This document shows, piece by piece, positions 27,593 through 43,537 of a stretch of 64,000 nt of DNA. Position numbers and translations under genes: made by a program. Location of the stretch: contig CABYGG010000001.1 of NCBI GenBank assembly GCA_902518505.1, positions 1-64,000 of the forward strand. Reading direction: 5' to 3'. This DNA comes from an uncultured Alphaproteobacteria bacterium. GTDB lineage: Bacteria > Pseudomonadota > Alphaproteobacteria > HIMB59. The notes under the pieces are model-generated. The model did not search any database and was not told the DNA's origin. It worked only from the letters and a program-made list of their open reading frames with translations. The stretch's first letter is position 1. The number at the start of each line of letters is the position of its first letter.

Positions 27593-28042
27593 TTAAAAAT
27601 ACAAATACAGATAATCTTGAGCGATAATTTTTGAAGCAATAAAAACCTTTTCTGGTGGAAGCTCATCATAGCTGCTCCAACCGATGTATTTCAGAGAACC
27701 ATCTAAACCAACGAGTTTGCGGATTTCATCTAAAGACCGAAGAGGGTGACCCTCTAAAGAGAGATCGAGAAGATATGAATGGTTTTCATTTCCTTGGACA
27801 TGCAAACTCACAACTTGCCATTGATTTTGATTTTGATAGGGAAACACGTATATGTTCGACTGTGTTTCTATACTAATTGTTTGAGCGTAATTGTGTATTT
27901 GGTCATAAATTGTCTCTTTAAATAATTGCTTTGTTTCTTTATCTAAACTACCCAGCACAAAAATCGTTGACTGATTAATTTCTGCTTGAATTTGTAAAGA
28001 AAAGGTTAGGAACATGACCACAAATAATAATTTTTTAATCAT
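27593..28042 (-). CDS. Secreted protein of unknown function
   Basis: The 149-residue product starts MIKKLLFVVMFLTFSLQIQA, a clear signal peptide. The ATG overlaps the stop of the upstream gene (ATGA), with an AGGGATGG site before it, so ATG 28042 is preferred to the further ATG at 28057. The mature region has no cysteine and no family match. Confidence 0.6.
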   Translation of the reverse strand: MIKKLLFVVMFLTFSLQIQAEINQSTIFVLGSLDKETKQLFKETIYDQIHNYAQTISIETQSNIYVFPYQNQNQWQVVSLHVQGNENHSYLLDLSLEGHPLRSLDEIRKLVGLDGSLKYIGWSSYDELPPEKVFIASKIIAQDYLYLYF

Positions 28043-28566
28043 GTCCATCCCTGGCACGTATCCAAAGCGCTGTTAAGAGCAGAACTGAGTCCGTTAGCTT
28101 TCATTTCTATCTCTTGTTTTTCAAACCTGTTGAGAGGATCATTGATAGAAAATGAAATTTGTCCTCTTTTGGACAACAGGTCTTCCAGCTTGGAGAAGTG
28201 ATGTTTATAAAAACTCATTAACTCCCACCGAACGTATCCATCGGCATTCAATCGGCTTGCATCTTCGCCTTCATAAGATTGACCTGAGAGCTTCCAATCA
28301 AACGTCTCACCACTCATGACGTCAAAATCTTTGGGCTCAAATTCTCGATTGGTGTAAACTAATCGAGCATCACAACTTAAGTTTGGATCGACAATAAAAA
28401 TAATCATTTGATCTTGGTTTTCCAAGCTAAAGACTAAGTCTAAGTTTTCTTCTTGAGCCTCCATATGTATCCAATTATCAAATTCATGATGCATAGGACT
28501 GCCCTCTGCTTTCAAAGAACAATTAGTTAAAAAAACACTGATAAATAACAATAATATTGCTCTCAT
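28039..28566 (-). CDS. Secreted protein or lipoprotein of unknown function
   Basis: This 175-residue protein has a hydrophobic N-terminus with Cys16 in FLTNCS, a non-ideal lipobox. The mature domain begins with a tryptophan-containing strand and has two further cysteines, in LSCDAR and DTCQGW. That spacing loosely resembles IalB-like periplasmic proteins. The start overlaps the HTH-gene stop by one base (TAATG). It is in an operon with the HTH gene and another secreted protein. Confidence 0.6.
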   Translation of the reverse strand: MRAILLLFISVFLTNCSLKAEGSPMHHEFDNWIHMEAQEENLDLVFSLENQDQMIIFIVDPNLSCDARLVYTNREFEPKDFDVMSGETFDWKLSGQSYEGEDASRLNADGYVRWELMSFYKHHFSKLEDLLSKRGQISFSINDPLNRFEKQEIEMKANGLSSALNSALDTCQGWT

Positions 28567-28992: not shown

Positions 28993-29457
28993 ATGTCTAA
29001 AACAAAAGAAATTATCACCATTGAACATACCCTAAAAGAGGTTCTTAAAAATTTAAGTGATCAAGACATTCAAGATATCACTGGGAAGTCTAAGTCTTAT
29101 ATATACAAATGTGCTGATCCTGACGATACTGATAGGAATATACAATTTAGAACTGTCATACGTTTAGAGCATGCTATGCATAAAATTTACCAAAAAACTC
29201 CCTTTAGCAATTTTTTGAAAGATTATCTAGCAACCGCCCAACCCGAAAAACCTGCTAGCGAAAGCGAAGTACAATCAGAAATATTAGCGATAGGGGGAAG
29301 ATTGGGAGACTTAATGGATGCTGTACGTGAGTCAATGGATGAGAAAAGTTCAGGGGGATCAAAAATAGTCCCACATGAAAAAGAGAAAATTTACCAAGAC
29401 ATCCAAAAATTAGATGATCAGTTGAGTAAAATTAAGAGTGTGTTAAAATCACTCTAA
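28993..29457 (+). CDS. HTH regulator, paralogue of the 33.5-kb gene
   Basis: This 154-residue protein has an N-terminal helix-turn-helix (DIQDITGKSKSYIYKCADPDD) and a C-terminal helical part with GGRLGDLMDAV and a final coiled-coil-like segment. It aligns along its length with the protein at 33470-33931. The pattern recalls phage CII-like regulators of alphaproteobacteria. TATAGT lies 6 bases before the ATG, so the transcript may be leaderless. The PDZ-channel gene follows after 1 base. Confidence 0.65.
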   Translation: MSKTKEIITIEHTLKEVLKNLSDQDIQDITGKSKSYIYKCADPDDTDRNIQFRTVIRLEHAMHKIYQKTPFSNFLKDYLATAQPEKPASESEVQSEILAIGGRLGDLMDAVRESMDEKSSGGSKIVPHEKEKIYQDIQKLDDQLSKIKSVLKSL

Positions 29458-29458
29458 T

Positions 29459-30844
29459 TTGTTTTTAAGGGGGATACTTTTAGGATTTTGGGTTTTCTTT
29501 TCCAGTGTTAGCTGGGGAGCAGAAATTTGTGAACGACTCCTAAAAAAAGACTTCAGGGAAACGTCTAATATTCGCCTGGCCTACAATGATGTCGGTGTAG
29601 TTTTAGAGGAAAACGGCCCATTTATTGACAAAATACGCTTTGGGTCTTCTGCCTTTGAGTCTTCTATATCTACAGGAGATCAGATTATCGAAATTAACGG
29701 GGAGGATATATCCAATATTGAAGAAGATAATGTAAAGAAATTTTTAGCTACTAGGAATGTTTCGTTAAAAGTAATTGGATCTGATGGTGAAGCTAAAACA
29801 ATTAGTTTAGAGAGAACCCCGTATTTGGGACACCCTATTGTCGAATTTGATATTATTTTGAGAGACATAGAGATTATTCAACAAAGTAGTAAAACTAGTT
29901 TAGATTTTGAAGTACATCTAAAGTGGAGAAATGAAGATTTAATTCATAAACTACCTCTAATATTAGGTTTAGATAAAGCCAAGTTTGCTGAAAATGAAGA
30001 CTCTGAAATAAAATGTATCTTTAGAAAATCTGCTGAATTAGAAAATATTCTCCAAAAAATATGGTATCCTAATTTCGATGCATCAGATATCACTTCATTT
30101 ATTCATCGATCTGAGTTTCATAGCTTATTAGTAACAAGTAACAAACCTTATAATTTTCATTTAGTTCAAAAAATAAATTACCAAGCAAATAATATTTCGG
30201 AATTTCAAAAATTTCCATTCGATATAATAGCAACATCAGCAGGCTTTGTTTTCCAAGACACTGATCTGAGTACATCCGCATTATATAATCCTGAATTTGT
30301 GATTGATAGGGGTAACGAAAATCTTTACGAGTGGCAAATAACAAATCACGATTTTGACTGCTGTCCTACAAAAATTTACGGTCAAGGTGTGCAACAAGAG
30401 GTTCATTTCAACTTTGAGCTTACAAGAAAATCTTTCTATTATATTTTGAAAATAATTCTACCAGTCATCTTTTTGGTTTATCTATCGTTTAGTGTATTTT
30501 GGATACCGGCCCGTGAACTTGAGTCCAAGTTAGCAGTATCACTAGGTTCTTTACTAACACTCGTAGTATTTCAATTTACATTTGGTGATGGACTACCAAA
30601 AATCAATAAAATCAGTATTTTAGATGCTTGGATTTTGATTTCTTATTTGTTCACAGGTCTTTCTACTATTATAACAATTTGGAGTTACTGGGATTACCAT
30701 CGTGATCATCAAACGGGTCGCTATAATACAATTGATAAAAAATTATTTTGGTCTCTAAGTCTGAGCTATTTTTTATTTATGGCTATTTGTGGATGGGCTA
30801 TTAAGAATAATTGGAATATTCTTAACAATGGTATAACTGTCTAA
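29459..30844 (+). CDS. PDZ domain-pLGIC fusion (ligand-gated ion channel homologue) 1
   Basis: This 461-residue protein has a signal peptide (1-21), a PDZ-like domain (about 40-118, with STGDQIIEINGEDI), a beta-rich ectodomain (about 120-322) and four membrane helices (325-349, 357-375, 386-409, 430-447). The ectodomain has KFPFD at 251-255, the position of the Cys-loop FPFD in pentameric channels, and YEWQI before M1. M1 carries the family proline (ILPVIFLVYLSFSVFW). Prokaryotic pLGICs such as GLIC lack a PDZ domain. The start is a TTG with no clear ribosome-binding site. Confidence 0.8.
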   Translation: MFLRGILLGFWVFFSSVSWGAEICERLLKKDFRETSNIRLAYNDVGVVLEENGPFIDKIRFGSSAFESSISTGDQIIEINGEDISNIEEDNVKKFLATRNVSLKVIGSDGEAKTISLERTPYLGHPIVEFDIILRDIEIIQQSSKTSLDFEVHLKWRNEDLIHKLPLILGLDKAKFAENEDSEIKCIFRKSAELENILQKIWYPNFDASDITSFIHRSEFHSLLVTSNKPYNFHLVQKINYQANNISEFQKFPFDIIATSAGFVFQDTDLSTSALYNPEFVIDRGNENLYEWQITNHDFDCCPTKIYGQGVQQEVHFNFELTRKSFYYILKIILPVIFLVYLSFSVFWIPARELESKLAVSLGSLLTLVVFQFTFGDGLPKINKISILDAWILISYLFTGLSTIITIWSYWDYHRDHQTGRYNTIDKKLFWSLSLSYFLFMAICGWAIKNNWNILNNGITV

Positions 30845-30908
30845 AATTTAATAATTTTTTCCCATTCTTTATTTTTAAAAATTAATATCTTTGTCTTCAG
30901 TGCAAAGA

Positions 30909-31068
30909 CCTCTCTCTTCCTTTCTGTTTTCAAGTTACTCCTTCTCTAAGTCATTTCCTACCAGGTTAATAAATGACAAACAAAAAAAAGAGAGAGGAAA
31001 AATTGAGGTGGTTTTTTCATGGTTCCTTTCTGTGCTGCGGCTAATCCCATCCTCCTGTAAATTAGCCG
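30909..31068. repeat. Cluster of inverted repeats in intergenic DNA
   Basis: CCTCTCTCTT (30909-30918) is repeated inverted as AAGAGAGAGG (30988-30997). CGGCTAAT (31038-31045) is repeated inverted as ATTAGCCG (31061-31068), and TTCCTTTCTGT occurs twice as a direct repeat. The spacer between the channel gene and the secreted gene can therefore form two hairpins. The structures could be terminators, RNA-stability elements or remnants of a small mobile repeat. Confidence 0.5.
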
Positions 31069-31670
31069 TGGTACAAAGAGGAAAATACTTAATATTAATA
31101 ATTATCTCTCTATTTTTTGTCTCCTTAAGCTCAGCGATGACTTTAGAAAAATTTCACGGTTGGAATATTCAATTATTGGAGGAGGAAATGATTGCAATCG
31201 AACGTAGTGGTGATGTTGAAGATTCAGAAAATATAATTTTTGTTATGACAAAAAATAATTGTGATCGTGTTCTTCAATTTTTTGAATTATTTACTTTATC
31301 AGCTCACCCTGATCTTACAAAATTAATAGATAAAGAAATTGAACTCCAGGAAAATGGTCATTCAACCACCGGAACGGTGTATGAAATATATCCGTATAAG
31401 AATGGACACATGATTTTAATAGGCATGGGTTCATACAATCATGAAACAATTAAAGAATATTATACTTTTCATAAACGCTCTCGCTTAACAGTCACCGATG
31501 TCCCTTTTGAGGAGCCAGTAGCCTTAAGAACATTTATAGACTTGCCTACAATTCAGTGGGCCATGCCTCAAGTAGAGGAAGCGATGGATAGAGCTCACAG
31601 GCATTGCAAAAAAATACCCGATCCCATCTCTGCTAGCCTAAACAATTCACAGAAAGGACTAAATACATGA
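31068..31670 (+). CDS. Secreted protein of unknown function
   Basis: The GTG at 31068 gives a 200-residue product with a signal peptide (ILIIISLFFVSLSSA). The frame stays open upstream to 30891, but that part crosses the inverted repeats and does not look like protein. Two cysteines (CDRV and HRHCKK) and a tryptophan-rich start recall the other periplasmic proteins of the island. The start is uncertain. Confidence 0.55.
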   Translation: MVQRGKYLILIIISLFFVSLSSAMTLEKFHGWNIQLLEEEMIAIERSGDVEDSENIIFVMTKNNCDRVLQFFELFTLSAHPDLTKLIDKEIELQENGHSTTGTVYEIYPYKNGHMILIGMGSYNHETIKEYYTFHKRSRLTVTDVPFEEPVALRTFIDLPTIQWAMPQVEEAMDRAHRHCKKIPDPISASLNNSQKGLNT

Positions 31671-31894
31671 CTTTTTTACATTTTTTAGCAGCAGTTTTAT
31701 TCTTGTATGTTGCAGATGAGCAAAATCACAGCCAACTTCATTTTGGTAAGAAATGCTTTCAAAATGAAAACGGGGATATTGTTTTTTCGCACATCTGGGT
31801 AACACGCCCTTTTGATGAATTACCTGCTAACAAAGAGCAATGTACATTGCTAGAGGAGCCCGAGCCTTCTGTCATTCCTAAATATGGAAAATAA
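31667..31894 (+). CDS. Small secreted or membrane protein
   Basis: This 75-residue product begins with a hydrophobic stretch (about 1-16) and has two cysteines (CFQN and CTLL). Its ATG overlaps the stop of the preceding secreted-protein gene by 4 bases (ATGA), which supports real translation. No family is recognised. Confidence 0.45.
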   Translation: MTFLHFLAAVLFLYVADEQNHSQLHFGKKCFQNENGDIVFSHIWVTRPFDELPANKEQCTLLEEPEPSVIPKYGK

Positions 31895-31922
31895 TACCTT
31901 TGATGAACTTAAAATTTACTTA

Positions 31923-32013
31923 TGCGGCCTTAGCTTAAATGGAAAAGCGTCCCACACTGAGATTTCTTGCGGGAAGGGAAGATGCAGGTTCGACTCCTGA
32001 TCCGGCTGCACCA
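31923..32013 (+). tRNA. tRNA-like sequence with encoded CCA and aberrant anticodon arm
   Basis: TGCGGCC pairs with GGCTGCA as a 7-bp acceptor stem with one G-T pair, followed directly by CCA. GCTT/AAGC around a GG-containing loop forms a D-arm. CAGG-TTCGACT-CCTG forms a T-arm with a standard T-loop and only 4 firm pairs. Between them no normal 5+7+5 anticodon arm fits: the best stem is TCCCACA/TGCGGGA with one mismatch and an 11-base loop containing CTGAGAT, which would read GAG. It is either an unusual long-variable-arm tRNA or a degenerate copy. Confidence 0.4.
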
Positions 32014-32055
32014 AAACAATTTAATGAGATTTCAAGTAAACTTATAATTCCTTTT

Positions 32056-32469
32056 ATGGGCCAGAGTTATTTGATTGGATGTCAAAAATGTGATTTCAAA
32101 TCTAAAGAGATTAAGACAGGAGTGGGTTTTTTATTTGGAAATATCAATGACATAGTTTATGTCCTGAAAGGTACTGATAAAAAAAAAGTGCAAATCCTTA
32201 ATCACCAAAAACAAATTCACACTCATTATTCACGAGGTTACTCTCTTTATCAGTGTAGCAAATGCCACTCATTAGAAAATAAGTGTCACCTTACATTGTA
32301 TAACCAACAAGGAGATCTTATATTTCAAACAGAGTCTTATTGTAGGTCATGTCAAAAGGAGAGAGAGTATATGCCTGAGGATACTGATAATGAAACTATT
32401 CCAGATCTGTGCTGCCCTAAATGTCACCAACAGGATCTTAGAGTTTTACTCGGAATACTCTGGGACTGA
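32056..32469 (+). CDS. Multi-zinc-ribbon protein
   Basis: From the ATG at 32056 the 137-residue product has four CxxC pairs (CQKC, CSKC, CRSC and CPKC) plus other cysteines, enough for two zinc sites. It has no signal peptide. The frame continues upstream through the tRNA-like sequence, so an internal start is preferred. It is a cytoplasmic metal-binding unknown, possibly nucleic-acid binding. Confidence 0.5.
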   Translation: MGQSYLIGCQKCDFKSKEIKTGVGFLFGNINDIVYVLKGTDKKKVQILNHQKQIHTHYSRGYSLYQCSKCHSLENKCHLTLYNQQGDLIFQTESYCRSCQKEREYMPEDTDNETIPDLCCPKCHQQDLRVLLGILWD

Positions 32470-33011
32470 TGTACTATTTAAATGTGATATTTAAATACAT
32501 TTTAATTTTCTCAATTTGGCTGACACCAACTTTTGCCTTAACTGATCCATGGCAAATAGATCAAGATGAAAATTTCATCACTTTAAAAAAAAATGGTGAA
32601 ATCCAACATGGAAATAACATCCACTTTAATTTTGATAAGGATAATGGTTGTAGGTTTAATGTTTTTTTCTTCATTTATACGATGCAGGATAACCCATCAC
32701 CTTTAAATGAAATCTTTGAAGATCAACAAATTCATTTAAATTTTGGTGGCCAAGAGATATTAGCGAGTGTTGCTTTTACATCGCCATTTGGATTTGGTGA
32801 GATTGCAGGTATTTATGTAGCTCAAAATATCCCACTTTCAAAAGAATTTATCAAAATGAACCAGGATATGTTAAAAGGCAATTTAATGACTATGACTATT
32901 CAAAAAGAGTATGCAAAGTATTTTGATATACCCGAAGAAAGTTGGAGTTTTGAAAATTTTGGAGACAAAATGCACGAAGCTCATAATATCTGTATAGCTA
33001 ATCAAGTTTAA
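32469..33011 (+). CDS. Secreted protein of unknown function
   Basis: This 180-residue protein has a signal peptide (about 1-23, ending FALT). The mature part starts with WQIDQDENFITL, has one central cysteine (GCRF) and one C-terminal cysteine (NICIA), and resembles in layout the secreted protein at 31.1-31.7 kb. The start overlaps the zinc-ribbon gene by 1 base (TGATG). No function can be assigned. Confidence 0.6.
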   Translation: MYYLNVIFKYILIFSIWLTPTFALTDPWQIDQDENFITLKKNGEIQHGNNIHFNFDKDNGCRFNVFFFIYTMQDNPSPLNEIFEDQQIHLNFGGQEILASVAFTSPFGFGEIAGIYVAQNIPLSKEFIKMNQDMLKGNLMTMTIQKEYAKYFDIPEESWSFENFGDKMHEAHNICIANQV

Positions 33012-33179
33012 AATTTCCTGACACGTGTTAGTTGTTGTTTTAAATTAATCTTATTCATGTTAAAAAATTATAAGCACCGATTTACTAATCAATATTGCGG
33101 GTGCGTTATATAAATGCAGCTAAAACGGATAAAATTTTTCCATTTTTAGTTGCCTTGTTTAAACCAAAGGAGGTTAACA

Positions 33180-33335
33180 ATGCCAATGAAAAAATTAACA
33201 TTAAAAGAAATAAGAGAACTAGGAATACCTATTCATCGCTCTTATATTCAATTTAATCAAAAACCAACACCTAATCAAAAACTTAAAAAGTTTTTAAATG
33301 CTGCCAATAAACCAAAGGATATTAAAAATGGTTAG
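33180..33335 (+). CDS. Small basic protein
   Basis: The ATG at 33180 follows a perfect AAAGGAGG site with 6 bases spacing, much stronger than most sites in this window. The 51-residue product is lysine-rich and has no signal peptide. A second small gene starts inside its 3' end. It could bind nucleic acid, but nothing more can be said. Confidence 0.55.
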   Translation: MPMKKLTLKEIRELGIPIHRSYIQFNQKPTPNQKLKKFLNAANKPKDIKNG

Positions 33336-33432
33336 AGTAATTAAAGGTACAATCGCTAGAAAGCCTGAAGACTTAGTCAAACTTAAGTATAAAATAGGAA
33401 TAATATTTGGCAGAAATATCAGACCAATATAA
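33328..33432 (+). CDS. Small basic protein, possibly coupled
   Basis: A 34-residue frame starts at ATG 33328, 8 bases inside the end of the preceding small gene, with AAAGGAT about 10 bases upstream. The product is basic (MVRVIKGTIARKP at the start). The overlap suggests translational coupling, but the frame is short enough to be chance. Confidence 0.3.
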   Translation: MVRVIKGTIARKPEDLVKLKYKIGIIFGRNIRPI

Positions 33433-33469
33433 AATGAAAAAGTACCTAAGATTGACAAATCTATAGAAA

Positions 33470-33931
33470 TTAGTTCTTATCTACTGATATTTTTAAATTA
33501 ACGATTTTTTCTTCAAGACTTGCTATCGATTTATAAATTTCGTCTTTCTCTCTTTTTGATAAACTAATACCACCCTCGCTATGAATATGAGTAAAATCTT
33601 TTATTTTCTCCATCAATGATCCAATCCTACCGCCTATATTCAATAAAGATGTAGTTATGGCTTCATATTCATTAACTGTGCCTTTGCTTTTTATTAAGGC
33701 TTCGATACAAGACATGAGAGGTGTCCCTAAACCTTTTTTAAAAGCCAAAATGTCTAATTCAACAGCATCTTTTAAGTGAAGATTATGTTCATTATCACTT
33801 TCATCACTGCACTTTCGAAAAAAAGACTCTGACTTACCAGTCGCACTCTTAATATCTTCTTTATCAATTTTTCTTACAATCTCTTTTAGAGCTTGCTCTA
33901 TTGATAAAAACTCTCTTGTATATCCAGACAT
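33470..33931 (-). CDS. HTH regulator, paralogue of the 29-kb gene
   Basis: This 153-residue protein aligns with the one at 28993-29457. It has an N-terminal EQALKEIVRKI helix, a helix-turn-helix (DIKSATGKSESFFRKCSD), GGRIGSLMEKI and a C-terminal helix pair. A GTGAAA-N14-TTTCAC palindrome starts 8 bases upstream of its ATG and so could be its own operator. It is divergent from the 34-kb gene and is the best candidate regulator of the four-site regulon. Confidence 0.65.
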   Translation of the reverse strand: MSGYTREFLSIEQALKEIVRKIDKEDIKSATGKSESFFRKCSDESDNEHNLHLKDAVELDILAFKKGLGTPLMSCIEALIKSKGTVNEYEAITTSLLNIGGRIGSLMEKIKDFTHIHSEGGISLSKREKDEIYKSIASLEEKIVNLKISVDKN

Positions 33932-33939
33932 ATTCTTAT

Positions 33940-33965
33940 GTGAAATAATTTATAATCTTTTTCAC
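33940..33965. promoter_or_regulatory. GTGAAA-N14-TTTCAC palindrome, site 1
   Basis: GTGAAA and TTTCAC flank 14 bases between the leftward HTH gene (start 33931) and the rightward gene at 34013. It lies 8 bases from the first start and 47 bases from the second. The same arms and spacing recur at 34549, 39867 and 49311. Confidence 0.7.
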
Positions 33966-34012
33966 TTTAATTTAATCATCTTTGACACATACTTTCAACT
34001 GGGACGGATTAA

Positions 34013-34549
34013 ATGAAAAAGGGTAAAATTATTGATATTACTGATTATTTTGAAGAAGGAGACGAGTCAAAAAATCCTCAATACATACCTCAAATAACAA
34101 ATGCAAAAAGAGATTTAAATTTTTTAAATTCCAAACTAAATCTTGACGTGGTTTATAAAGAAATTGATAAGTCTAAAAATAAGCATGATAAAAAATGGGG
34201 TGGTGCTGATACTTGTATTATATCTCCTAATGATATGAAAAAATTTCAAAATGACCCCAGGGGTTTTAATTATATTGTTACACGTTTTTACAAAGAACTT
34301 AGTTGGTTATTTATCGTGATAACTAAAGTATGTCATAGAAATAATTTGTATGACTATTTAACTAAATACCATTTTTATTATTTACTTGCCGTTAGGGCAA
34401 ATAAATACATAAAAAAACATAATGAAAAAGAATTAAAGAAAAATCAAATTTACTCTAGAAAGTACGTTAAAAATCTTTTTGATGAAGTATTAGATGAATT
34501 TGACTTATACATACATCAGCTTGAGAAAGAATTAATCTCAATTAATTAG
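34013..34549 (+). CDS. Unknown cytoplasmic protein
   Basis: This 178-residue protein has no signal peptide or membrane helix. It is charged, with a hydrophobic helical middle (TRFYKELSWLFIVITKVC) and a lysine-rich C-terminal part. GGGACGGA precedes the ATG. It follows operator site 1, and its stop codon touches site 2. No family is recognised. Confidence 0.6.
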   Translation: MKKGKIIDITDYFEEGDESKNPQYIPQITNAKRDLNFLNSKLNLDVVYKEIDKSKNKHDKKWGGADTCIISPNDMKKFQNDPRGFNYIVTRFYKELSWLFIVITKVCHRNNLYDYLTKYHFYYLLAVRANKYIKKHNEKELKKNQIYSRKYVKNLFDEVLDEFDLYIHQLEKELISIN

Positions 34550-34574
34550 TGAAAAATAAAATTAAACATTTCAC
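34549..34574. promoter_or_regulatory. GTGAAA-N14-TTTCAC palindrome, site 2
   Basis: TTAGTGAAA and TTTCACTAA form 9-bp arms around the same 14-base spacer. The site starts on the last base of the preceding gene and ends 46 bases before the ATG at 34621. Confidence 0.7.
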
Positions 34575-34620
34575 TAAAAATTTTTTACTTAATTACTAAA
34601 TATTGATTATAGGAGAAAAT

Positions 34621-34824
34621 ATGAGAATTAATCTTGAAAAAAAATATCTTAATGAAAAAAGCCTTGCTGCTTATTTAGACACCTCTCATCATACTTTAAA
34701 GTATTGGAGAAAAATTGGTAAAGGTCCAGAATTTATAAAGTTACCAAATGGGAGGGTTAGGTATTTAGTTGATGATATTAATACCTACTGTAATAAATCT
34801 ATTGAAAATGGAGGATGTCAATGA
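34621..34824 (+). CDS. Excisionase/AlpA-like HTH protein
   Basis: The 67-residue product is a small winged-helix protein of the HTH_17 type: YLNEKSLAAYLDTSHHTLKYWRKIG, then a wing with PNGRVRYLVDDI. Such proteins act as excisionases or small transcription factors of mobile elements. ATG 34621 directly follows AGGAGAAAAT, which fixes the start. It lies behind operator site 2 and begins the rightward channel-protease gene run. Confidence 0.75.
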   Translation: MRINLEKKYLNEKSLAAYLDTSHHTLKYWRKIGKGPEFIKLPNGRVRYLVDDINTYCNKSIENGGCQ

Positions 34825-35153
34825 CATATAATATTTCTATGAATAAACCTGCTGAAAATTTTTTCTTGTCTTTCTGGAGAGGAGAATTAAGTTTAGGTGC
34901 TTCTTTTTGGGGGATTTTTGTTTTCCTGAGTATCATAGTTACTGGTTTGCTTGGAATATCTATGGACTATGTACCAGAGCAAATATCTTTTGCTTTGATG
35001 ACTGCCTTTATGATTTACACATGTGTAGGTATGTACCAATCAAATATTAAGCATGAGTCACATGGATTTATCACTTTTATATTACATCTTTGTGTTCTTA
35101 GCAGGTTTATCAAAGCAGTTGTATTTTTGTTCGCAACAATTACAAGCTTTTAA
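34821..35153 (+). CDS. Small membrane protein
   Basis: The 110-residue product has about three hydrophobic helices (residues 26-46, 52-72 and 82-108). ATG 34821 is spaced 6 bases from a GGAGG site, better than the ATG at 34815, and overlaps the HTH stop by 4 bases. The FWRGELSLGASFW start resembles small phage- or plasmid-borne membrane proteins. No family is certain. Confidence 0.55.
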   Translation: MTYNISMNKPAENFFLSFWRGELSLGASFWGIFVFLSIIVTGLLGISMDYVPEQISFALMTAFMIYTCVGMYQSNIKHESHGFITFILHLCVLSRFIKAVVFLFATITSF

Positions 35154-35156
35154 GTC

Positions 35157-35465
35157 ATGAAAAAAATATTTGCTCTAATAATTATTATGATTTCTTTAAA
35201 TTCCTATTCTCACGCAAAAGAATATAAAGCATTTTTATGTAATTATTACGTGTCTTCAACCTTGGCAGGTGATAACTGCCAAGGAACAAACAGTTGGTAT
35301 AAAATTTACTTCCCAGATTCATATAAAACAAAGGAAATTTGCAATTTGCAAAGTGAGGCAATATTTAATAATAATTTGATTTTAGAAATATTCCCTGATT
35401 ATCAATCATCTGGGGATGAGGTAAAGTCTTGGGTATCTGGATGCGATAATTCCTGGTTGCACTAA
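35157..35465 (+). CDS. Small secreted protein
   Basis: This 102-residue protein has a signal peptide (MKKIFALIIIMISLNSYSHA). The mature part has four cysteines (CNYY, NCQG, CNLQ and CDNS), consistent with two disulfides. It starts 3 bases after the membrane-protein gene and 45 bases before the second channel gene. A soluble partner for the channel is possible but not shown. Confidence 0.6.
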   Translation: MKKIFALIIIMISLNSYSHAKEYKAFLCNYYVSSTLAGDNCQGTNSWYKIYFPDSYKTKEICNLQSEAIFNNNLILEIFPDYQSSGDEVKSWVSGCDNSWLH

Positions 35466-35510
35466 AAAACTAACTTAAATTCTTAATATATATTTGTTAC
35501 TGTTTATAAA

Positions 35511-36911
35511 ATGGTAACAAAGTTTAGATATTTATTAATTTTTATAGTTAGTCTGTTTTTTTTTAATGGAACATTTACAAATTTAAAAGCTAATGAAATT
35601 TGTAATAAACTTATAAATGTTAATTACTTTTTTTCAGATCGATATATTGACAAATACGATCATGGAATAGGCTTAGAGGATTATGATGACCCAAACTCTG
35701 ATAAAATTTTTATTTTATCTATTGAAAACTTCTCCCCTGCAAAAGAAATTGGCCTTGAAAAATTTTTAGAAATTCACTCAATTGATAATATAAAAATTCA
35801 CGATAATCTAAAAGATAACTTTGAGGACACAATCGATTATATTTACGATCTAATGGACAAAAATAGTTTTTCTATCAAGGTCGTCGATGAAAATTCCGAA
35901 ATTATTAATTATGATATAACTAAGTTCACATATAAATCTGAACCAGAAGTTATAAGTAATTATTATATTGATAAAATTCAAATTATTAATTTAAACCGAG
36001 AAGCAAAGGCAAGATTTAGAATTTGGACTGACTGGAAAAATCCAAATTTTTTGAATTACATAAAAAAATCTTTTAACAATAATCAAGATTTTTCATGCTA
36101 TTACACAAATAAAGACAATATTGAAAAGCTTTTACAAAAATTTTGGTATCCGATTACCAGAGTCGATCAGACCGGTAGCACATTCTCCCTTGTAGATATT
36201 CTTGGTGTTGGTATTGACACATCTCTTGAGGATCCTTTTTCAATTACTTATGATATAGAAAGTTCTGTACCCACCGATGCAAATTTAAAGAAGTTTCCTT
36301 TTGACAACATGTCATTTTATTTTGATTTCAGTTATTTTTCAGGTGGAGATTTATTTCTCGCTGATGATTGGTTAGAACAATTAGATGATGGTGTCTATAG
36401 AACTAACCGTTATCTTTATGAGTGGCAAATTGTAGATGCCGAATTAACTTATGATCAAGACACATATGATATTGGAGGAGATCTTGTTTATCCACTCCAT
36501 TATTTGGAATTTGAGTTAGAGAGAAATACGCTTTATTATTTTATGAAGATAATTTTTCCCGTCATTTTTATAGTTTTAATTTCTTTTTCAGTATTTTGGA
36601 TTAAAAATCAGGAGATCGAAGCTAAACTTAATGTGTCTATAGTGAGTTTACTTGCTCTTATTGCATATAACTTTGTTTACAATTCAGAATTACCAAAATT
36701 AAACTTTATTACAATAATTGACTCATTAGTTTTCATTTCATATTTGTACTCTGGTGCAGCAACGATTGTTTCAATATACTCCTATTACGATTATAGAAGA
36801 GATGGCCAGAAAGGTGAGTTTAACTCATTAGATATAAACTTGCGATATATAGCACCAATATCATATTTTTTAATTATTCTCACTACGTCGTTTATTATAT
36901 ACAATAACTAA
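35511..36911 (+). CDS. PDZ-like domain-pLGIC fusion (ligand-gated ion channel homologue) 2
   Basis: This 466-residue protein is a paralogue of the channel at 29.5 kb. It has a signal peptide (about 1-27), a diverged PDZ-like region (about 65-140), a beta-rich ectodomain and helices at about 341-364, 372-390, 400-425 and 445-464. Shared landmarks are LQKFWYP (208-214), LKKFPFD (259-265), YLYEWQI and the M1 proline (IIFPVIFIVLISFSVFWI). The low similarity outside these marks implies an old duplication. It should form a pentameric inner-membrane channel. Confidence 0.78.
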   Translation: MVTKFRYLLIFIVSLFFFNGTFTNLKANEICNKLINVNYFFSDRYIDKYDHGIGLEDYDDPNSDKIFILSIENFSPAKEIGLEKFLEIHSIDNIKIHDNLKDNFEDTIDYIYDLMDKNSFSIKVVDENSEIINYDITKFTYKSEPEVISNYYIDKIQIINLNREAKARFRIWTDWKNPNFLNYIKKSFNNNQDFSCYYTNKDNIEKLLQKFWYPITRVDQTGSTFSLVDILGVGIDTSLEDPFSITYDIESSVPTDANLKKFPFDNMSFYFDFSYFSGGDLFLADDWLEQLDDGVYRTNRYLYEWQIVDAELTYDQDTYDIGGDLVYPLHYLEFELERNTLYYFMKIIFPVIFIVLISFSVFWIKNQEIEAKLNVSIVSLLALIAYNFVYNSELPKLNFITIIDSLVFISYLYSGAATIVSIYSYYDYRRDGQKGEFNSLDINLRYIAPISYFLIILTTSFIIYNN

Positions 36912-36937: not shown

Positions 36938-37762
36938 ATGGGTACAGCCTTTTACTTATCTCTTAACTCTATACCAGCTATCTTTATTCTAGGAATCTTT
37001 TTACTTAGAGAGAAAAAAAAAGAGCCTATATCAATAGTATTATCTGCTTTCGCTTTGACCTATATTATAGTCATACCATTAGATATATTAATTAGCATTG
37101 TAGATCCTTTTCTTGATACAAACTTTCAAAATAAAGAGGCAAACCCTTTTTTAACAGATGAGGTTTTTTATAAACATTATTATTCTATTTTTGCTTTTTT
37201 TAGAGCAGCTTTTCTTGAAGAATTTTTGAAATTCTCAGTATTATTTTTATTTATTTATCAAAATACTAATTTTGATGAACTATCTGATGGTGTAATTTAC
37301 GGTGCAGCAGTAGGCTTGGGTTATGCTGTTGTAGAAAACTATAATTATCTTTTTAATTATTATTTATATGACACACCTATGCTTTATTTTATTCAAGACA
37401 GATGGTGGGCATTAATTGCACATGTAACTCTAGGCATTATTATGGGAATACTTCTGGCTAAATCAAGATTGTTAAATGTCAATAAATACCTAACGTTATT
37501 TTCATCCTTGTGTGTCCCAATATTTTTACATGGACTTCACAATTATACTTACGATAGTAAAATACTTTATGAAAACAATATTCATTTTTATTTACTAATA
37601 TTTTATTTTCTTGTAATTCTGCTTTCCTTAGTATTTTTACCAAAATTAGAGACTTATAAATTTAGATATGAAAAAAATTCAATTTATGGCGACTATATCA
37701 AGATTTCTTTTTGTGGTTTAATTTTTTCATTGATATTAGCAATATTTTTTGGTTTCATTTAG
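36938..37762 (+). CDS. PrsW-like glutamic intramembrane protease
   Basis: This 274-residue polytopic protein has the PrsW motifs: EEFLK (94-98, the catalytic glutamate pair), DGVIYGAAVGLGYAVVEN (117-134), a membrane histidine (His162 in AHVTLG) and a late HGLHNY motif. PrsW cleaves anti-sigma factors in Bacillus. The gene starts 26 bases after the channel gene, so the two are probably co-expressed and may share a signalling role. The substrate is unknown. Confidence 0.82.
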   Translation: MGTAFYLSLNSIPAIFILGIFLLREKKKEPISIVLSAFALTYIIVIPLDILISIVDPFLDTNFQNKEANPFLTDEVFYKHYYSIFAFFRAAFLEEFLKFSVLFLFIYQNTNFDELSDGVIYGAAVGLGYAVVENYNYLFNYYLYDTPMLYFIQDRWWALIAHVTLGIIMGILLAKSRLLNVNKYLTLFSSLCVPIFLHGLHNYTYDSKILYENNIHFYLLIFYFLVILLSLVFLPKLETYKFRYEKNSIYGDYIKISFCGLIFSLILAIFFGFI

Positions 37763-39927: not shown

Positions 39928-40758
39928 ATGATTAGCCTTAAAAGAAACGGTAAAGGTGAAATTCAATTGGCTAAGGGCAAGCGTGTTCGACAGAGTTCTA
40001 TGTACAAACCTGGACAAAGCTCTCCTTTTAAAATAAGTAGGTCAAAATTTTCAGATTTTATTGATTGTCCAAGATGTTTTTACTTAGATAGAGTCAAAGG
40101 CCTAGACTCACCATCTGTGCCAGGTTGGTCACTAAATGTGGCAGTTGATGAACTATTAAAAAAAGAATTTGATATTTATCGCGATGAACAAAAACCTCAT
40201 CCTATTTTTATTGATAACAATTTAAAATTTGTTCCTTTCAAACATCCTGATTTAGATAAATGGAGAGACTCTAGAACAGGAGGAATTTCATATGAAGATG
40301 AAAATACAAATTTGATTATTCAAGGAGGTGTTGATGATATTTGGTTTGATAATGATACAAACCAATTGGTTGTGGCCGATTATAAAGCTCAATCTAGTAG
40401 TGCAGCTTTAGAAAAAAATACTTATCTATCTAGCCCGTATCATCAATCATATAAAACTCAAATGGAGATATATGTACATATTCTAAAAAAAATGGGATTT
40501 GAGGTATCTTCAAAAACATATTTTGTTGTTTGTAATGCACGGAAAAATTTAGAAAGATTTGATTCTAATATGCAATTTGATGTAAAATTAATTGAGTATG
40601 AAGCTGACACTTCATGGGTTGAGGAGAAGATTATTGAAATGAAAAAAGTACTAGACTCAGAAATATTTCCAAACCCTAATCCTTGTTGTATGAATTGTGC
40701 GTATGTTAACCTCTCTAAAAATTTTTACAAAGAAACCCTTATAAAAAGTAATGACTGA
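39928..40758 (+). CDS. Cas4/RecB-like PD-(D/E)XK nuclease
   Basis: This 276-residue protein has the RecB-family nuclease core: IIQGGVDDIWF (Asp136/Asp137), VVADYKA (Asp151-x-Lys153) and QMEIYVHIL (the QxxxY motif). Cysteines at 47 and 50 (DCPRCFY) and a C-terminal CCMNC could hold a 4Fe-4S cluster, as in Cas4 and AddB. It likely acts as a 5'-3' or single-strand exonuclease. It is the first gene of the operon and overlaps the Z1 gene by 8 bases. Confidence 0.82.
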   Translation: MISLKRNGKGEIQLAKGKRVRQSSMYKPGQSSPFKISRSKFSDFIDCPRCFYLDRVKGLDSPSVPGWSLNVAVDELLKKEFDIYRDEQKPHPIFIDNNLKFVPFKHPDLDKWRDSRTGGISYEDENTNLIIQGGVDDIWFDNDTNQLVVADYKAQSSSAALEKNTYLSSPYHQSYKTQMEIYVHILKKMGFEVSSKTYFVVCNARKNLERFDSNMQFDVKLIEYEADTSWVEEKIIEMKKVLDSEIFPNPNPCCMNCAYVNLSKNFYKETLIKSND

Positions 40759-43537
40759 CGACAATCTTACAAAAATGATTAGAGATTCGATTGATAATGA
40801 AAATCGTAAAGGAATTAAACTAGAAGAAATAGAGACAACCTTAAAAAAATATTACGCTAAAAGCTATCATTTAATTATAGAGGAACAAATTAATGAAATT
40901 AGACAGGATATGGAAGATATTATATCTTATAATGGTCAGTGCGCTATTAACGATCCTGAAAATATAAAATGGTACTCAAAAAAAACACGTAATTTTGAAA
41001 ATTGGAACTTATACAAAAGCCATCTCAAAAATAGAAAAAAACCTTTATCTGAAAAAGCAATTGAGGATATTGATTTTTATACAGATAAAATTATTGCAAA
41101 TTGTTCTGATCCAGGTTCACCTAAAGTTAATTCAAAAGGCTTAGTTGTAGGATACGTACAGAGTGGAAAAACTGCAAATTTTATTGGTTTATTGGCTAAA
41201 GCAGCTGACGTTGGCTATAATTTGATTATAGTTTTAACTGGAACTAAAGAAAAGCTCAGAAGCCAAACCCAAACTAGGATTGATAACGACTTATGTTCAT
41301 TAAATCCTGGAAAATTAGTGCTTAAAACATATGTAAATAAAGACTTTAGAAAACCACCTGATAGCCCTGAGGCATGGTTTAACTCTACAAATCAAACGTC
41401 ACTTTTGATTGTAAAAAAAAACAAGACAATTCTTTCAAACTTTATTGACTGGGTAAAATATGGAAAAACTTCAACTGAATTTAATAAAGTTGAAACCGTT
41501 GAGGCTGTTAGATCGCAAGCTAAAACTCTAATTATTGATGATGAGGCAGATGAAGCCAGCATAAATGTATCCAGACACGATGACATGAGCCAAATATATG
41601 AAAAAATAGTAACAATTAGACAGATACTGCCAAAGTCAGCGTTTGTAGGATTTACTGCAACACCATTTGCCAATGTTCTTATTGATCACAAAACATTTGA
41701 TGGACACAATCTTTATCCAAATAATTTTATTATAAATCTACCAAAGCCTTCTGGTTACTTTGGAGCACAAGAGGTTTTTGGAAGAAGACGAACCCAATCT
41801 GAAATTGATGATGTTGGAACTGATGAAGATATTGAAGGAATAAATGTAATTAGAGACATACCACATCATGAAATATTGGATCTTAAACCGCAAAGAAATA
41901 GTTTAGTTGATGACTTCAAACCTAAAATAAATAAAACCCTTAGAACAGCAATTGATTATTTTCTTATCTCAACTTGTATTAAAATTGCGAGACTTGGGAA
42001 GCTTGATCATACCACAATGTTTGTTCATACACATGTTAGAGCAAAAATTCAAATTAAAACCATTAAAATCATAATAAAATATATACAAGAGATACGATCA
42101 AAATTTGAAAATGAAAATATAGAATTAATGGGTCACTTAAAAAATTTATGGGATGAAGAAATTTACAAAGTAGAGAGAAAAGATAATGAAAAAAAAATAG
42201 AGTTCAAAGAAGCAATGAATTTTTTTGATTATGTTTCTGAAAATTTGATTGTAACAATGGTAAACACATCTCGGGATGCAAGAGAATTACCTAAATTAGA
42301 TTATAAAAAAGAACACGAAGATGAACCGGGAAAGATATATCTTGTAGTTGGAGGAAATATTTTATCTAGAGGTTTAACTTTAGAGGGCCTTACTGTTAGT
42401 TATTTTTTAAGAACTAGTTCAATGTACGATACTCTCCTACAAATGGGAAGATGGTTTGGATTTAGAAATGAATACAGTGATTTACCAAGAATTTGGACCA
42501 CTGAGGGAATTAAAAAAAATTTTTATCATCTTGCTCAAGTTGAGCAAGAAATTAGAGAAGAAATGAGTATGTACAACAATTGGGGAGTTAATCCTTTAAA
42601 TTACAAAATTAGAATTAGGATCATTCCTAAGATGCAAGTTACTTCAAGATTAAAAATGAAAGATGCAGAGACAAATAAAAGATACAGTTTAAATACTCAA
42701 AGATCTGAAATTACAGTTTTTGATCCTAAAAACTTAGAAATACTTAACCACAATATAAAAACTGTAAAATCACTTTTTGAAAAAAATTCTTCTAAACTAA
42801 TGCCTTATAAACACCAATTTATTATAAGAGGTGTAAAGAACTCTGACATCAGAGAGTTTTTAGATTCCGAAAATAATAATAGATTCATAATAAATAAAGG
42901 AGAGCCAAGTATAAATCCCGTTACATTGATTAAATATTTAGATGAATTAACAAAAGAAAACCTCTTGAGCGATTGGAATATTGTTTTTGACTCACTTAAC
43001 TCTGAATCAAAAAAATTGGGACAATTAAAAATTTCAAATGATTTAATTTTAAATTGCAGAAAAAGATCGGAATTATTAGATAAATCTAATTATATATATT
43101 TCAAACATATCACCTCAGAGAGAGATTACTTTGCTGATATTGAAGAGGAAGTCCTTGAATCTATAAAAGACCAATCAATAATAAAAAAATTAGAAGTCTT
43201 TAACATTGCAAACAAAAGTAATTTAAAACTTAAAAATCAAAATAAAATTAATAACGAAGATAAGGTTATTTATAGATTATTATTTGCACAAAAAACTGGG
43301 ATGATATTTATTGTGCCAATTTCAAAAGACTCTGATTCTGTTGATGCCGTTCAACATCTGATATCATTTATGATTGTTTTACCTCCCCTTAATCCAAGAA
43401 AAGATTCTTTACATGCAACAACCCAACCATTATTAAGATCAAATTATATATCTGGGATTCCAGACGAAGAGTATGGAGAGTTAGAAGAAGAGGTAGAAGA
43501 CGATTTTGAGGAAGAGGCGGATGATAATGACGAATAA
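40751..43537 (+). CDS. Z1-domain superfamily 2-like ATPase
   Basis: This 928-residue protein has Walker A GYVQSGKT (134-141), a DEAD-like box LIIDDEADEA (about 258-267), motif III GFTATPFAN (about 299-307) and the Z1 signature GGNILSRGLTLEGL with LQMGRWFGFR (about 534-570). Z1 ATPases occur in restriction-type operons together with MORC-like GHKL ATPases and are thought to translocate or remodel DNA. The gene is complete, and its C-terminal end is strongly acidic. Confidence 0.9.
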   Translation: MTDDNLTKMIRDSIDNENRKGIKLEEIETTLKKYYAKSYHLIIEEQINEIRQDMEDIISYNGQCAINDPENIKWYSKKTRNFENWNLYKSHLKNRKKPLSEKAIEDIDFYTDKIIANCSDPGSPKVNSKGLVVGYVQSGKTANFIGLLAKAADVGYNLIIVLTGTKEKLRSQTQTRIDNDLCSLNPGKLVLKTYVNKDFRKPPDSPEAWFNSTNQTSLLIVKKNKTILSNFIDWVKYGKTSTEFNKVETVEAVRSQAKTLIIDDEADEASINVSRHDDMSQIYEKIVTIRQILPKSAFVGFTATPFANVLIDHKTFDGHNLYPNNFIINLPKPSGYFGAQEVFGRRRTQSEIDDVGTDEDIEGINVIRDIPHHEILDLKPQRNSLVDDFKPKINKTLRTAIDYFLISTCIKIARLGKLDHTTMFVHTHVRAKIQIKTIKIIIKYIQEIRSKFENENIELMGHLKNLWDEEIYKVERKDNEKKIEFKEAMNFFDYVSENLIVTMVNTSRDARELPKLDYKKEHEDEPGKIYLVVGGNILSRGLTLEGLTVSYFLRTSSMYDTLLQMGRWFGFRNEYSDLPRIWTTEGIKKNFYHLAQVEQEIREEMSMYNNWGVNPLNYKIRIRIIPKMQVTSRLKMKDAETNKRYSLNTQRSEITVFDPKNLEILNHNIKTVKSLFEKNSSKLMPYKHQFIIRGVKNSDIREFLDSENNNRFIINKGEPSINPVTLIKYLDELTKENLLSDWNIVFDSLNSESKKLGQLKISNDLILNCRKRSELLDKSNYIYFKHITSERDYFADIEEEVLESIKDQSIIKKLEVFNIANKSNLKLKNQNKINNEDKVIYRLLFAQKTGMIFIVPISKDSDSVDAVQHLISFMIVLPPLNPRKDSLHATTQPLLRSNYISGIPDEEYGELEEEVEDDFEEEADDNDE

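What the first reader, a model, noticed from the sequence alone, without database searches (positions are those of the whole stretch)
29459..36911. Two ligand-gated ion channel homologues with N-terminal PDZ-type domains
The proteins at 29459-30844 and 35511-36911 each have a signal peptide, a PDZ or PDZ-like region, a beta-rich ectodomain with the FPFD loop and YEWQI before M1, and four helices with the pLGIC M1 proline and an LPK segment between M2 and M3. Characterised bacterial pLGICs (GLIC, ELIC) lack a PDZ domain; DeCLIC has a different N-terminal extension. A periplasmic PDZ domain could tie channel gating to a peptide or protein C-terminus. The PDZ call is good for the first protein and weaker for the second.
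Basis: partly seen in the sequence, partly recalled or inferred. Interest (0 to 1): 0.85.

Follow-up and report, generated by a model that had tools for sequence, protein, structure and literature searches.

The report
PDZ-carrying bacterial neurotransmitter-receptor-like channels
A small ocean bacterium carries two relatives of nerve-receptor ion channels that have a protein-tail-binding (PDZ) domain built into their outer part, a combination I did not find described in print, and one of them is swapped between near relatives as if under pressure to differ.

Summary
p1 (29459-30844) matches Pfam PDZ (4.3e-9) and Neur_chan_memb (3.1e-9), both above cutoff. p2 (35511-36911) is a diverged paralogue. 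Its N-domain is below Pfam's PDZ cutoff, but it outscores every apparently non-PDZ decoy when scanned with a p1-PDZ profile. Neither AlphaFold job gave a usable model, so fold and pentamer are untested.

New facts: (1) The PDZ is an insertion between an N-terminal Cys segment and the ectodomain; PDZ-less versions exist at both loci. (2) At the p1 locus the mature channel behaves as an exchangeable cassette: 55 of 130 genome pairs with both flanks >=90% identical have p1 <75%; between two alleles PDZ is 38% identical, M1-M3 84%. (3) Channels not of p1 type sit within 0.9 kb of a PrsW intramembrane-protease gene in 8 of 9 cases in this order, and in one case in another order. (4) p1 has a vicinal Cys-Cys near nicotinic-receptor loop C. 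(5) M2 carries a Glu aligned with GLIC's, so cation selectivity is predicted.

Best reading: a periplasmic sensor channel whose PDZ binds a protein C-terminus and biases gating, tied to envelope-stress proteolysis. Architecture is well supported for p1, fairly for p2; the mechanism is inferred. A new variant of a known kind.

The parts
29459..30844 (+). p1: pLGIC subunit with inserted PDZ domain, 461 aa; its TTG start is separated by one base from the stop of the upstream gene
   Evidence: Pfam PF00595 4.3e-9, PF02932 3.1e-9; 17-sequence profile to GLIC 7.9e-22; start region
29588..29821 (+). p1 PDZ domain, residues 44-121, carboxylate-loop motif D-x-G-[VI]
   Evidence: loop present in 25 of 25 full-length non-redundant p1 proteins
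29822..30424 (+). p1 ectodomain, residues 122-322, with FPFD Pro-loop and vicinal Cys301-Cys302 (30359-30364)
   Evidence: F252, P253, D255, C186 invariant; CC in 25 of 25 p1 proteins; position
30425..30841 (+). p1 M1-M4; E355 (30521-30523) aligns with the Glu before GLIC M2; C-terminus Ile-x-Val
   Evidence: HMMER alignment to GLIC; tail counts
29528..29530 (+). p1 Cys24, N-terminal of the PDZ; likely pairs with Cys186 (30014-30016)
   Evidence: C186 invariant and C24 at least 90% conserved in the 35 aligned proteins; both in 25 of 25 p1 proteins; pairing inferred
35511..36911 (+). p2: second pLGIC subunit, 466 aa, diverged PDZ-like N-domain
35658..35924 (+). p2 PDZ-like region, residues 50-138, with loop G-I-G-L at 52-55
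   Evidence: decoy-tested profile score; PDZ_2 0.23; loop position
36938..37762 (+). PrsW-family intramembrane protease gene directly after p2
   Evidence: PF13367 1.3e-25; adjacency in relatives
28993..29457 (+). HTH154: small regulator-like gene just before p1; only weak hits (phage CII-like 0.049, CapH 0.006)
   Evidence: conserved beside p1
33470..33931 (-). homologue of HTH154 in the p2 region
   Evidence: relatives beside pLGICs in L053, L056 and L055; profile match to HTH154 (the two alignments share members)
30891..31670 (+). acc259: secreted protein that follows p1 in the relatives, also PDZ-less ones
   Evidence: no Pfam match
32469..33011 (+). sec180: smaller homologue of acc259
35157..35465 (+). 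sec102: small secreted protein before p2, also present near a pLGIC in the sister family
   Evidence: L055/L088, 45% identity
37711..38352 (+). sec213: secreted protein after PrsW; the PrsW-sec213 pair recurs in the sister family
   Evidence: L088, 41% identity
27593..28057 (-). sec154: small secreted protein with C-terminus Tyr-Leu-Tyr-Phe, a candidate PDZ ligand (speculative)
   Evidence: C-terminus table

Best explanation
p1 and p2 are homologous subunits of inner-membrane pentameric channels of the GLIC/nicotinic-receptor superfamily. A PDZ domain is inserted between a short N-terminal segment, probably pinned to the ectodomain by a Cys24-Cys186 disulphide, and the first ectodomain strand, so the PDZ is held at both ends on the periplasmic face. 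I think the PDZ binds the C-terminus of an envelope protein or peptide and shifts the gating of a cation-conducting pore, with the channel acting as an envelope sensor. For p2 the output is probably tied to the adjacent PrsW protease, by analogy with PDZ-guided DegS/RseP and PrsW/RsiW stress signalling (recalled). Shown at sequence level: architecture (p1 clearly, p2 fairly), conserved loop and Cys residues, PrsW adjacency, PDZ-less versions, allelic exchange at p1. Inferred: pentamer, periplasmic topology, cation selectivity, ligand binding, coupling to gating and to PrsW.
For: PDZ and pore matches; decoy test for p2. The D-x-G-[VI] carboxylate loop is kept in 25 of 25 full-length non-redundant p1 proteins although PDZ identity between allele A and the other alleles is only 29-38%; C24 and C186 in 25 of 25. 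A Glu aligned with the one before GLIC M2 is invariant in the 35 aligned proteins. PDZ-less versions keep both Cys and the channel. PrsW adjacency: of 9 channel places not of p1 type in the order, 8 lie within 0.9 kb of a PrsW gene, while only 20 PrsW matches exist, in 19 of 162 genomes. One case in another order has the two genes overlapping by 4 bases (G555). In G146, at the p2 slot, channel (40%) and PrsW (64%) have both diverged while six neighbours keep 81-98%. The best PDB matches of the p1 PDZ profile are chains of a site-2 protease homologue, with an InaD-like and a DegP-like chain next.
Against: No fold model supports it. The first hydrophobic position of the canonical carboxylate loop is Ser in 18 of 25 p1 proteins and Gly in 2, so the pocket may be weak. 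PDZ-less versions at both loci show the PDZ is dispensable for having the channel. p1-type channels are not next to PrsW; 8 of the 20 PrsW places have no channel match on their contig, three lie 11-13 kb from p1 and one lies 4.3 kb from a channel that has another PrsW nearer. The 8 adjacent cases are not all independent. No ligand is identified. p2 falls below both Pfam cutoffs.
Confidence: 0.4

Rival explanations
1. The PDZ is an assembly, tethering or localisation module that anchors the channel to another envelope protein and does not sense a ligand that gates the pore.
For: Known PDZ roles (recalled). PDZ-less versions exist at both loci, so having the channel does not need it. The N-cap Cys pair is kept with or without the PDZ.
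Against: A tether to one fixed partner would be expected to be conserved, yet between alleles A and B the PDZ is the most variable part (38%, against 46% in M4 and tail, 59% in the ectodomain and 84% in M1-M3).
Confidence: 0.2
2. The p1 locus is a recognition or conflict locus (kin, phage, toxin or predator related): the channel is a depolarising effector whose variable PDZ/ectodomain recognises a variable non-self or stress molecule.
For: Cassette exchange: 55 of 130 pairs with both flanks >=90% identical have p1 <75%, with boundaries, at 100-base resolution, near the signal peptide and at the gene's end. The region also carries an MZA-like defence gene at 40751-43537 (MzaC 2.4e-82). PADLOC gives HTH154 a weak CapH hit (0.006).
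Against: PADLOC has no hit at E <= 0.1 for p1, p2 or PrsW. No copy was found in the one search made of each collection (p2 in phages; p1 in plasmids). 47 of the 130 pairs keep p1 at 90% or more. Flexible islands in this clade can also be metabolic (PMC10734472, passages read).
Confidence: 0.15
3. Self-ligand model: the PDZ binds the channel's own C-terminal Phi-x-Val tail, which leaves M4 on the same side of the membrane, and acts as a latch.
For: Phi-x-V ends 21 of 25 full-length non-redundant p1 proteins although the preceding residues vary, resembling a class II PDZ ligand (recalled).
Against: 4 of 25 p1 proteins carry the PDZ but end VYN without the tail; p2 also lacks it. The tail starts at the membrane and the PDZ insertion near the far end of the ectodomain, a long reach (inferred geometry).
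Confidence: 0.1
4. The N-domain of p2 and its PrsW-linked relatives is an unrelated alpha-beta insert and only p1 carries a true PDZ.
For: No Pfam PDZ hit up to E=10 for L092, L088 or L090, nor up to E=1 for L099 or L054. Decoy windows that match or beat them, each of 1272: L090 13, L099 21, L088 26, L092 60, L054 520.
Against: p2's N-domain outscores every apparently non-PDZ decoy, sits at the same insertion point and has a G-I-G-L loop.
Confidence: 0.15

Closest known systems
GLIC (Gloeobacter proton-gated pLGIC) and other plain prokaryotic pLGICs
   Same: Pore, Pro-loop, Pro-Lys between M2 and M3, Glu before M2; profile match 7.9e-22
   Different: No PDZ and no N-terminal Cys paired with the Cys before the W-x-P motif (recalled sequence); PrsW was not mentioned in the passages I read
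DeCLIC
   Same: Prokaryotic pLGIC with a periplasmic domain N-terminal of the ectodomain
   Different: Its NTD is two jelly-roll lobes (PMC12664993, passages), not a PDZ
[quoted passage not shown]
   Same: Sensor domain fused before the ectodomain
   Different: Those are small-molecule-binding domains; PDZ occurs 0 times in that text. Several distant relatives fetched here have long N-terminal regions that read as PBP-I-like by eye (L105, L110-L112)
DegS/RseP PDZ-controlled and PrsW/RsiW envelope-stress proteolysis (recalled)
   Same: PDZ nearest to protease PDZs by profile; PrsW gene beside p2
   Different: Here the PDZ is on an ion channel, and I recognised no sigma/anti-sigma pair beside p2 by reading the ORFs; an ECF sigma gene lies near another PrsW in L086

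Membership tests
pLGIC (Cys-loop / Pro-loop receptor) | Match to the Neur_chan_memb profile above cutoff | tested here: met
   p1 37.9 bits against cutoff 28.1; p2 24.4 bits is below cutoff, but it aligns over its length with p1 at about 29%
pLGIC (Cys-loop / Pro-loop receptor) | Pro-loop FPFD, pre-M1 Arg, M1 Pro, Pro-Lys between M2 and M3 | tested here: met
   F252, P253, D255, R323, P335, P380, K381 invariant in the 35 aligned proteins
pLGIC (Cys-loop / Pro-loop receptor) | Pentamer with central pore and channel activity | not testable with these tools
   no complex prediction and no physiology available
PDZ domain | Match to a PDZ profile above cutoff | tested here: met
   p1 37.0 bits against cutoff 23.2; for p2 not met (12.2 bits against 27)
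PDZ domain | Phi-G-Phi carboxylate-binding loop | tested here: inconclusive
   G-[VI] kept in 25 of 25 p1 proteins; the first Phi is Val in 5, Ser in 18, Gly in 2; p2 has GIGL
PDZ domain | PDZ fold | tested here: inconclusive
   AlphaFold mean pLDDT 42 and 39 from single sequences
PBP/Cache/MCP-N fused pLGIC | PBP, Cache or MCP-N domain before the ectodomain | tested here: not met
   at E <= 1 Pfam gives only PDZ models in that region of p1 and p2
DeCLIC-type N-terminal domain | Two jelly-roll lobes before the ectodomain | not tested
   no structural comparison was possible; p1's region matches PDZ instead
PrsW protease | PF13367 match | tested here: met
   1.3e-25; EExxK present by reading (EEFLK)
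Nicotinic receptor alpha-type subunit | Vicinal Cys-Cys in loop C | tested here: inconclusive
   CC in 25 of 25 p1 proteins, but its place in loop C is my reading against recalled nicotinic sequences; membership not claimed
Known anti-phage defence system | PADLOC match | tested here: not met
   0 families at E <= 0.1 for p1, p2 and PrsW

The most novel reading that the evidence does not exclude
A receptor channel in marine bacteria whose gating is set by a periplasmic PDZ domain that reads protein C-termini, working with a PrsW intramembrane protease, and whose PDZ/ectodomain is diversified by cassette exchange between close relatives, so that the channel acts as a recognition or envelope-surveillance receptor.
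Probability: 0.2. Interest if true: 0.9.

Novelty: new variant of a known kind. Interest (0 to 1): 0.7.

Why it matters
Native ligands of prokaryotic pLGICs (recalled) and the role of their extra N-terminal domains are open questions; the 2025 DeCLIC paper says that little is known of these domains and that the only one partially characterised is DeCLIC's (PMC12664993, passages). A PDZ gives a concrete, testable class of ligand (protein C-termini). The PrsW pairing gives a possible pathway, and natural PDZ-plus and PDZ-minus versions at one locus give ready-made controls. Cassette exchange of a channel in a small-genome ocean bacterium suggests selection on what it recognises.

Tried and rejected
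AlphaFold on p1 alone and on the p2 N-domain alone gave mean pLDDT 42 and 39 and were not used. No fold search was run on these models.

Viral-contig scans with p1 and with alignment A1 found no relative. p1 in plasmids and p2 in phages: no match.

hhalign of the p1 PDZ profile against single N-domains was weak (P: p2 0.014, L088 0.037, L090 0.11, L092 0.18, L093 without PDZ 0.24, L054 0.33), so I used the decoy test instead. The MAFFT alignment of the PrsW-linked N-domains (A4) was too poor to use.

Considered and rejected: acc259 as an allele-specific PDZ ligand, because it stays alike (median 93% DNA) in the 55 pairs where p1 differs. The self-ligand tail as a general rule, because 4 of 25 p1 proteins and p2 lack it. 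A common family of all the small secreted proteins: only acc259 and sec180 are clear homologues, and their alignments share members.

Rows dropped: for the 25 non-redundant p1 proteins I left out a truncated copy (L045), a contig-end fragment (L065) and the PDZ-less L014 and L015; for the 24 genomes I also left out G155 (acc259 cut by the contig end), G151 (broken frame) and the PDZ-less G013 and G015.

Papers: searches. Passages were read in PMC549065, PMC10308909, PMC10734472, PMC12664993, PMC9897478 and PMC4795631; of all other papers only the search listing with the start of the abstract was seen. 'Not in print' rests (PDZ with pLGIC terms) and on PDZ counts of 0 in the main texts of PMC549065, PMC12664993, PMC9897478 and PMC4795631.

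Changes made when I checked the report against the calls: the Cys-Cys was moved from 300-301 to 301-302, the gap between HTH154 and p1 from two bases to one, the adjacency limit from 1.1 to 0.9 kb, and the PrsW tally was recounted.


Full report
WHAT WAS CHECKED. p1 (29459-30844, 461 aa) carries both a PDZ match (PF00595, 4.3e-9, residues 46-105) and a receptor-channel membrane match (PF02932, 3.1e-9), both over Pfam's cutoffs. p2 (35511-36911, 466 aa) carries PF02932 at 4.2e-5, below cutoff, and PDZ_2 at 0.23. A profile from 17 sequences (p1, p2 and 15 relatives) matches GLIC structures at 7.9e-22 over profile positions 241-446; 291 distinct PDB sequences pass E 0.01 and the 60 shown are all GLIC by name. 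In that alignment the second Glu of the 'eles' stretch lies on the Glu at the start of GLIC's M2; that this position is numbered -2' and favours cations is recalled. F252, P253, D255, R323, P335, E355, P380 and K381 are invariant in the 35 aligned proteins.

PDZ OF p1. Three PDZ models hit p1 relatives: among 35 scanned members, some near-identical, PDZ_2 matched 27, PDZ_6 23 and PDZ 22 at E <= 10. The diverged L012 gives PDZ_6 1.8e-4, L013 and L047 give 0.009-0.05, and PDZ-less L093, L014 and L015 give no PDZ hit at E <= 10. A profile from 10 p1 PDZ regions matched 76 distinct PDB sequences at E <= 0.1; the 60 shown all bear names of PDZ-bearing proteins as I recognise them, led by an Aquifex RseP homologue (7.8e-6 for the whole chain, summed over two weak PDZ domains); the one-domain harmonin chain gives 6.1e-4.

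PDZ OF p2. I scored p2's N-domain with an HMM of p1 PDZs against 1272 windows from 380 other proteins in the loci held, leaving out BLAST relatives of p1 and p2. p2 scored 9.3 bits. Four windows scored as high or higher: two from DegP-like proteins that one search had brought in for a PDZ-region match, and two from one trypsin-like protein with a readable PDZ. The next, apparently unrelated, window scored 7.5. The N-domains of more distant channels are only suggestive (windows at or above: L090 13, L099 21, L088 26, L092 60) or not supported (L054 520); PDZ-less L014, L015 and L093 give 136, 601 and 368. Neither AlphaFold run gave a usable model.

AN INSERTED DOMAIN. Relatives in the same gene slot lack the PDZ: L014 and L015 (405 and 404 aa) at the p1 locus, and L093 (388 aa) at the p2 locus, flanked by homologues of the same genes. 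All three keep the N-terminal Cys segment and the Cys before the motif that reads W-x-P in p1. C186 is invariant and C24 at least 90% conserved among the 35. If these pair, the PDZ is clamped at both ends and does not hang on a flexible linker (inference).

CASSETTE EXCHANGE AT p1. In 100-base steps, the DNA of the window and L004 is 90-99% identical through the upstream genes and the signal peptide, 46-72% from about codon 35-45 to the end of p1, and 90-99% in acc259; L003, which has the window's allele, stays at 85-100% through p1. Over 24 genomes (276 pairs), 130 pairs have both HTH154 and the last 540 bases of acc259 at least 90% identical; of these 55 have p1 (codon 51 on) below 75%, 28 have 75-90% and 47 have 90% or more. 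In 16 of the 276 pairs p1 is more alike than both flanks. Between alleles A and B, amino-acid identity is 95% in the signal/N-cap, 38% in the PDZ, 59% in the ectodomain, 84% in M1-M3 and 46% in M4 and tail; a third allele keeps B's PDZ (92%) but has another M4 (10%). Between A and B the pore is the most conserved of the mature parts.

GENE CONTEXT. In the loci where both sides are held, p1 orthologues lie between a small regulator-like gene (HTH154, one base before p1 in the window) and the secreted acc259, including the PDZ-less ones. p2 lies in sec102-p2-PrsW-sec213. PrsW is confirmed by PF13367 at 1.3e-25. In the order, 35 of 162 genomes have a match to the channel family, some only as fragments or broken frames (G024, G141, G149, G151, G063), and 19 of 162 have 20 PrsW matches in all. 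Nine channel places are not of p1 type: p2 in G000, G018 and G156; G146, G147, G048, G063; and two in G089. Eight of these nine lie within 0.9 kb of a PrsW gene: PrsW follows directly for p2 and G146, lies directly upstream and overlaps in G147 and G048, lies upstream of a broken channel frame in G063, and is separated by two small genes in G089. The exception is G089 contig 3. Of the other 12 PrsW matches, one lies 4.3 kb from the G089 channel, three lie 11-13 kb from p1 (G017, G145, G161) and eight have no channel match on their contig (G011, G015, G019, G022, G088, G099, G116, G150). These cases are not all independent: G000, G018, G156 and G146 share one locus, and G048 and G063 look alike. 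In another order (4 of 32 genomes matched, two of them only in the PDZ region, one channel cut by the contig start), G555 has PrsW directly upstream, overlapping the channel by 4 bases. In G146 the channel (40%) and PrsW (64%) have diverged most while 178, 112, sec102, sec213, 250 and 220 keep 81-98%, which suggests that channel and PrsW change together.

DISTRIBUTION. Evenly drawn samples: PF02932 at E <= 0.001 in 11 of 385 genomes of the class, 6 of them over cutoff; A2 profile in 11 of 372 of the class and 14 of 398 of the phylum, where for genomes with many first-look candidates only 4 were scored. In the last two samples, the only matches spanning both PDZ region and channel are from this genus; some are PDZ-region hits in other proteins (G490, G440, G466; G682, G858). 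A diverged PDZ could be missed this way, so wider occurrence is not excluded. The channel-plus-N-domain form was seen in two alphaproteobacterial orders, but the N-domain of the second order (L099) is only suggestively PDZ.

ORGANISM. Close loci are uncultured Alphaproteobacteria genomes (AG-910-G06, AG-901-E23, AG-894-O04, AG-896-E11). With genomes of this genus up to about 1.4 Mb and an order of two families, this fits HIMB59/AEGEAN-169 (PMC10734472 passages describe two families and similarly named single-cell genomes). This assignment is inferred.

OTHER FEATURES. p1 has Cys-Cys at 301-302, present in 25 of 25 p1 proteins, in the stretch before M1 where nicotinic alpha subunits have their loop-C vicinal pair (judged against recalled sequences); it is followed by Pro in 5 of the 25. 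p2 and the PDZ-less channels at the p1 locus lack it. The p1 tail ends Phi-x-V in 21 of 25.

INTERPRETATION. The architecture is shown at sequence level. That the PDZ binds a C-terminus, that this alters gating, and that p2 works with PrsW are inferences from domain type, conservation and neighbours. Because acc259 and HTH154 stay nearly constant while the PDZ changes, a variable partner, if there is one, is probably not one of these two.

NOVELTY. PDZ does not occur in the texts I searched of Tasneem et al., Jaiteh et al. (these authors state that they discarded terminal regions) or two DeCLIC papers. Searches combining PDZ with pLGIC terms listed no paper on such a fusion by title or abstract. 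Most subscription journals and preprints were not searchable.

Noticed in passing
[not shown]
   Followed up: partly
p1 residues 301-302 (30359-30364): Conserved vicinal Cys-Cys near the loop-C position, as in nicotinic alpha subunits (recalled); present in 25 of 25 p1 proteins and absent from p2.
   Followed up: partly
window 27593-28057 (-): sec154, a small secreted protein of the p1 neighbourhood, ends in L-Y-L-Y-F in 10 of 13 locus copies and L-F-L-H-F in 2; one copy (L063) ends differently. Reminiscent of DegS PDZ ligands (recalled).
   Followed up: partly
L086 13954-18565: In a related genome an ECF sigma factor (Pfam 4.3e-12), a possible anti-sigma (RseA_N only 0.13) and a trypsin-like gene (by reading) precede another PrsW gene about 12 kb from p1.
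   Followed up: partly
L088 5305-6685: A PrsW-sec213 pair 4.3 kb from a channel in the sister family, suggesting that PrsW and sec213 form a unit.
   Followed up: no
window 2154-23540: Many sugar-uptake and sugar-processing genes (several ABC transporters, glycosidase-like genes), judged by reading the ORFs.
   Followed up: no
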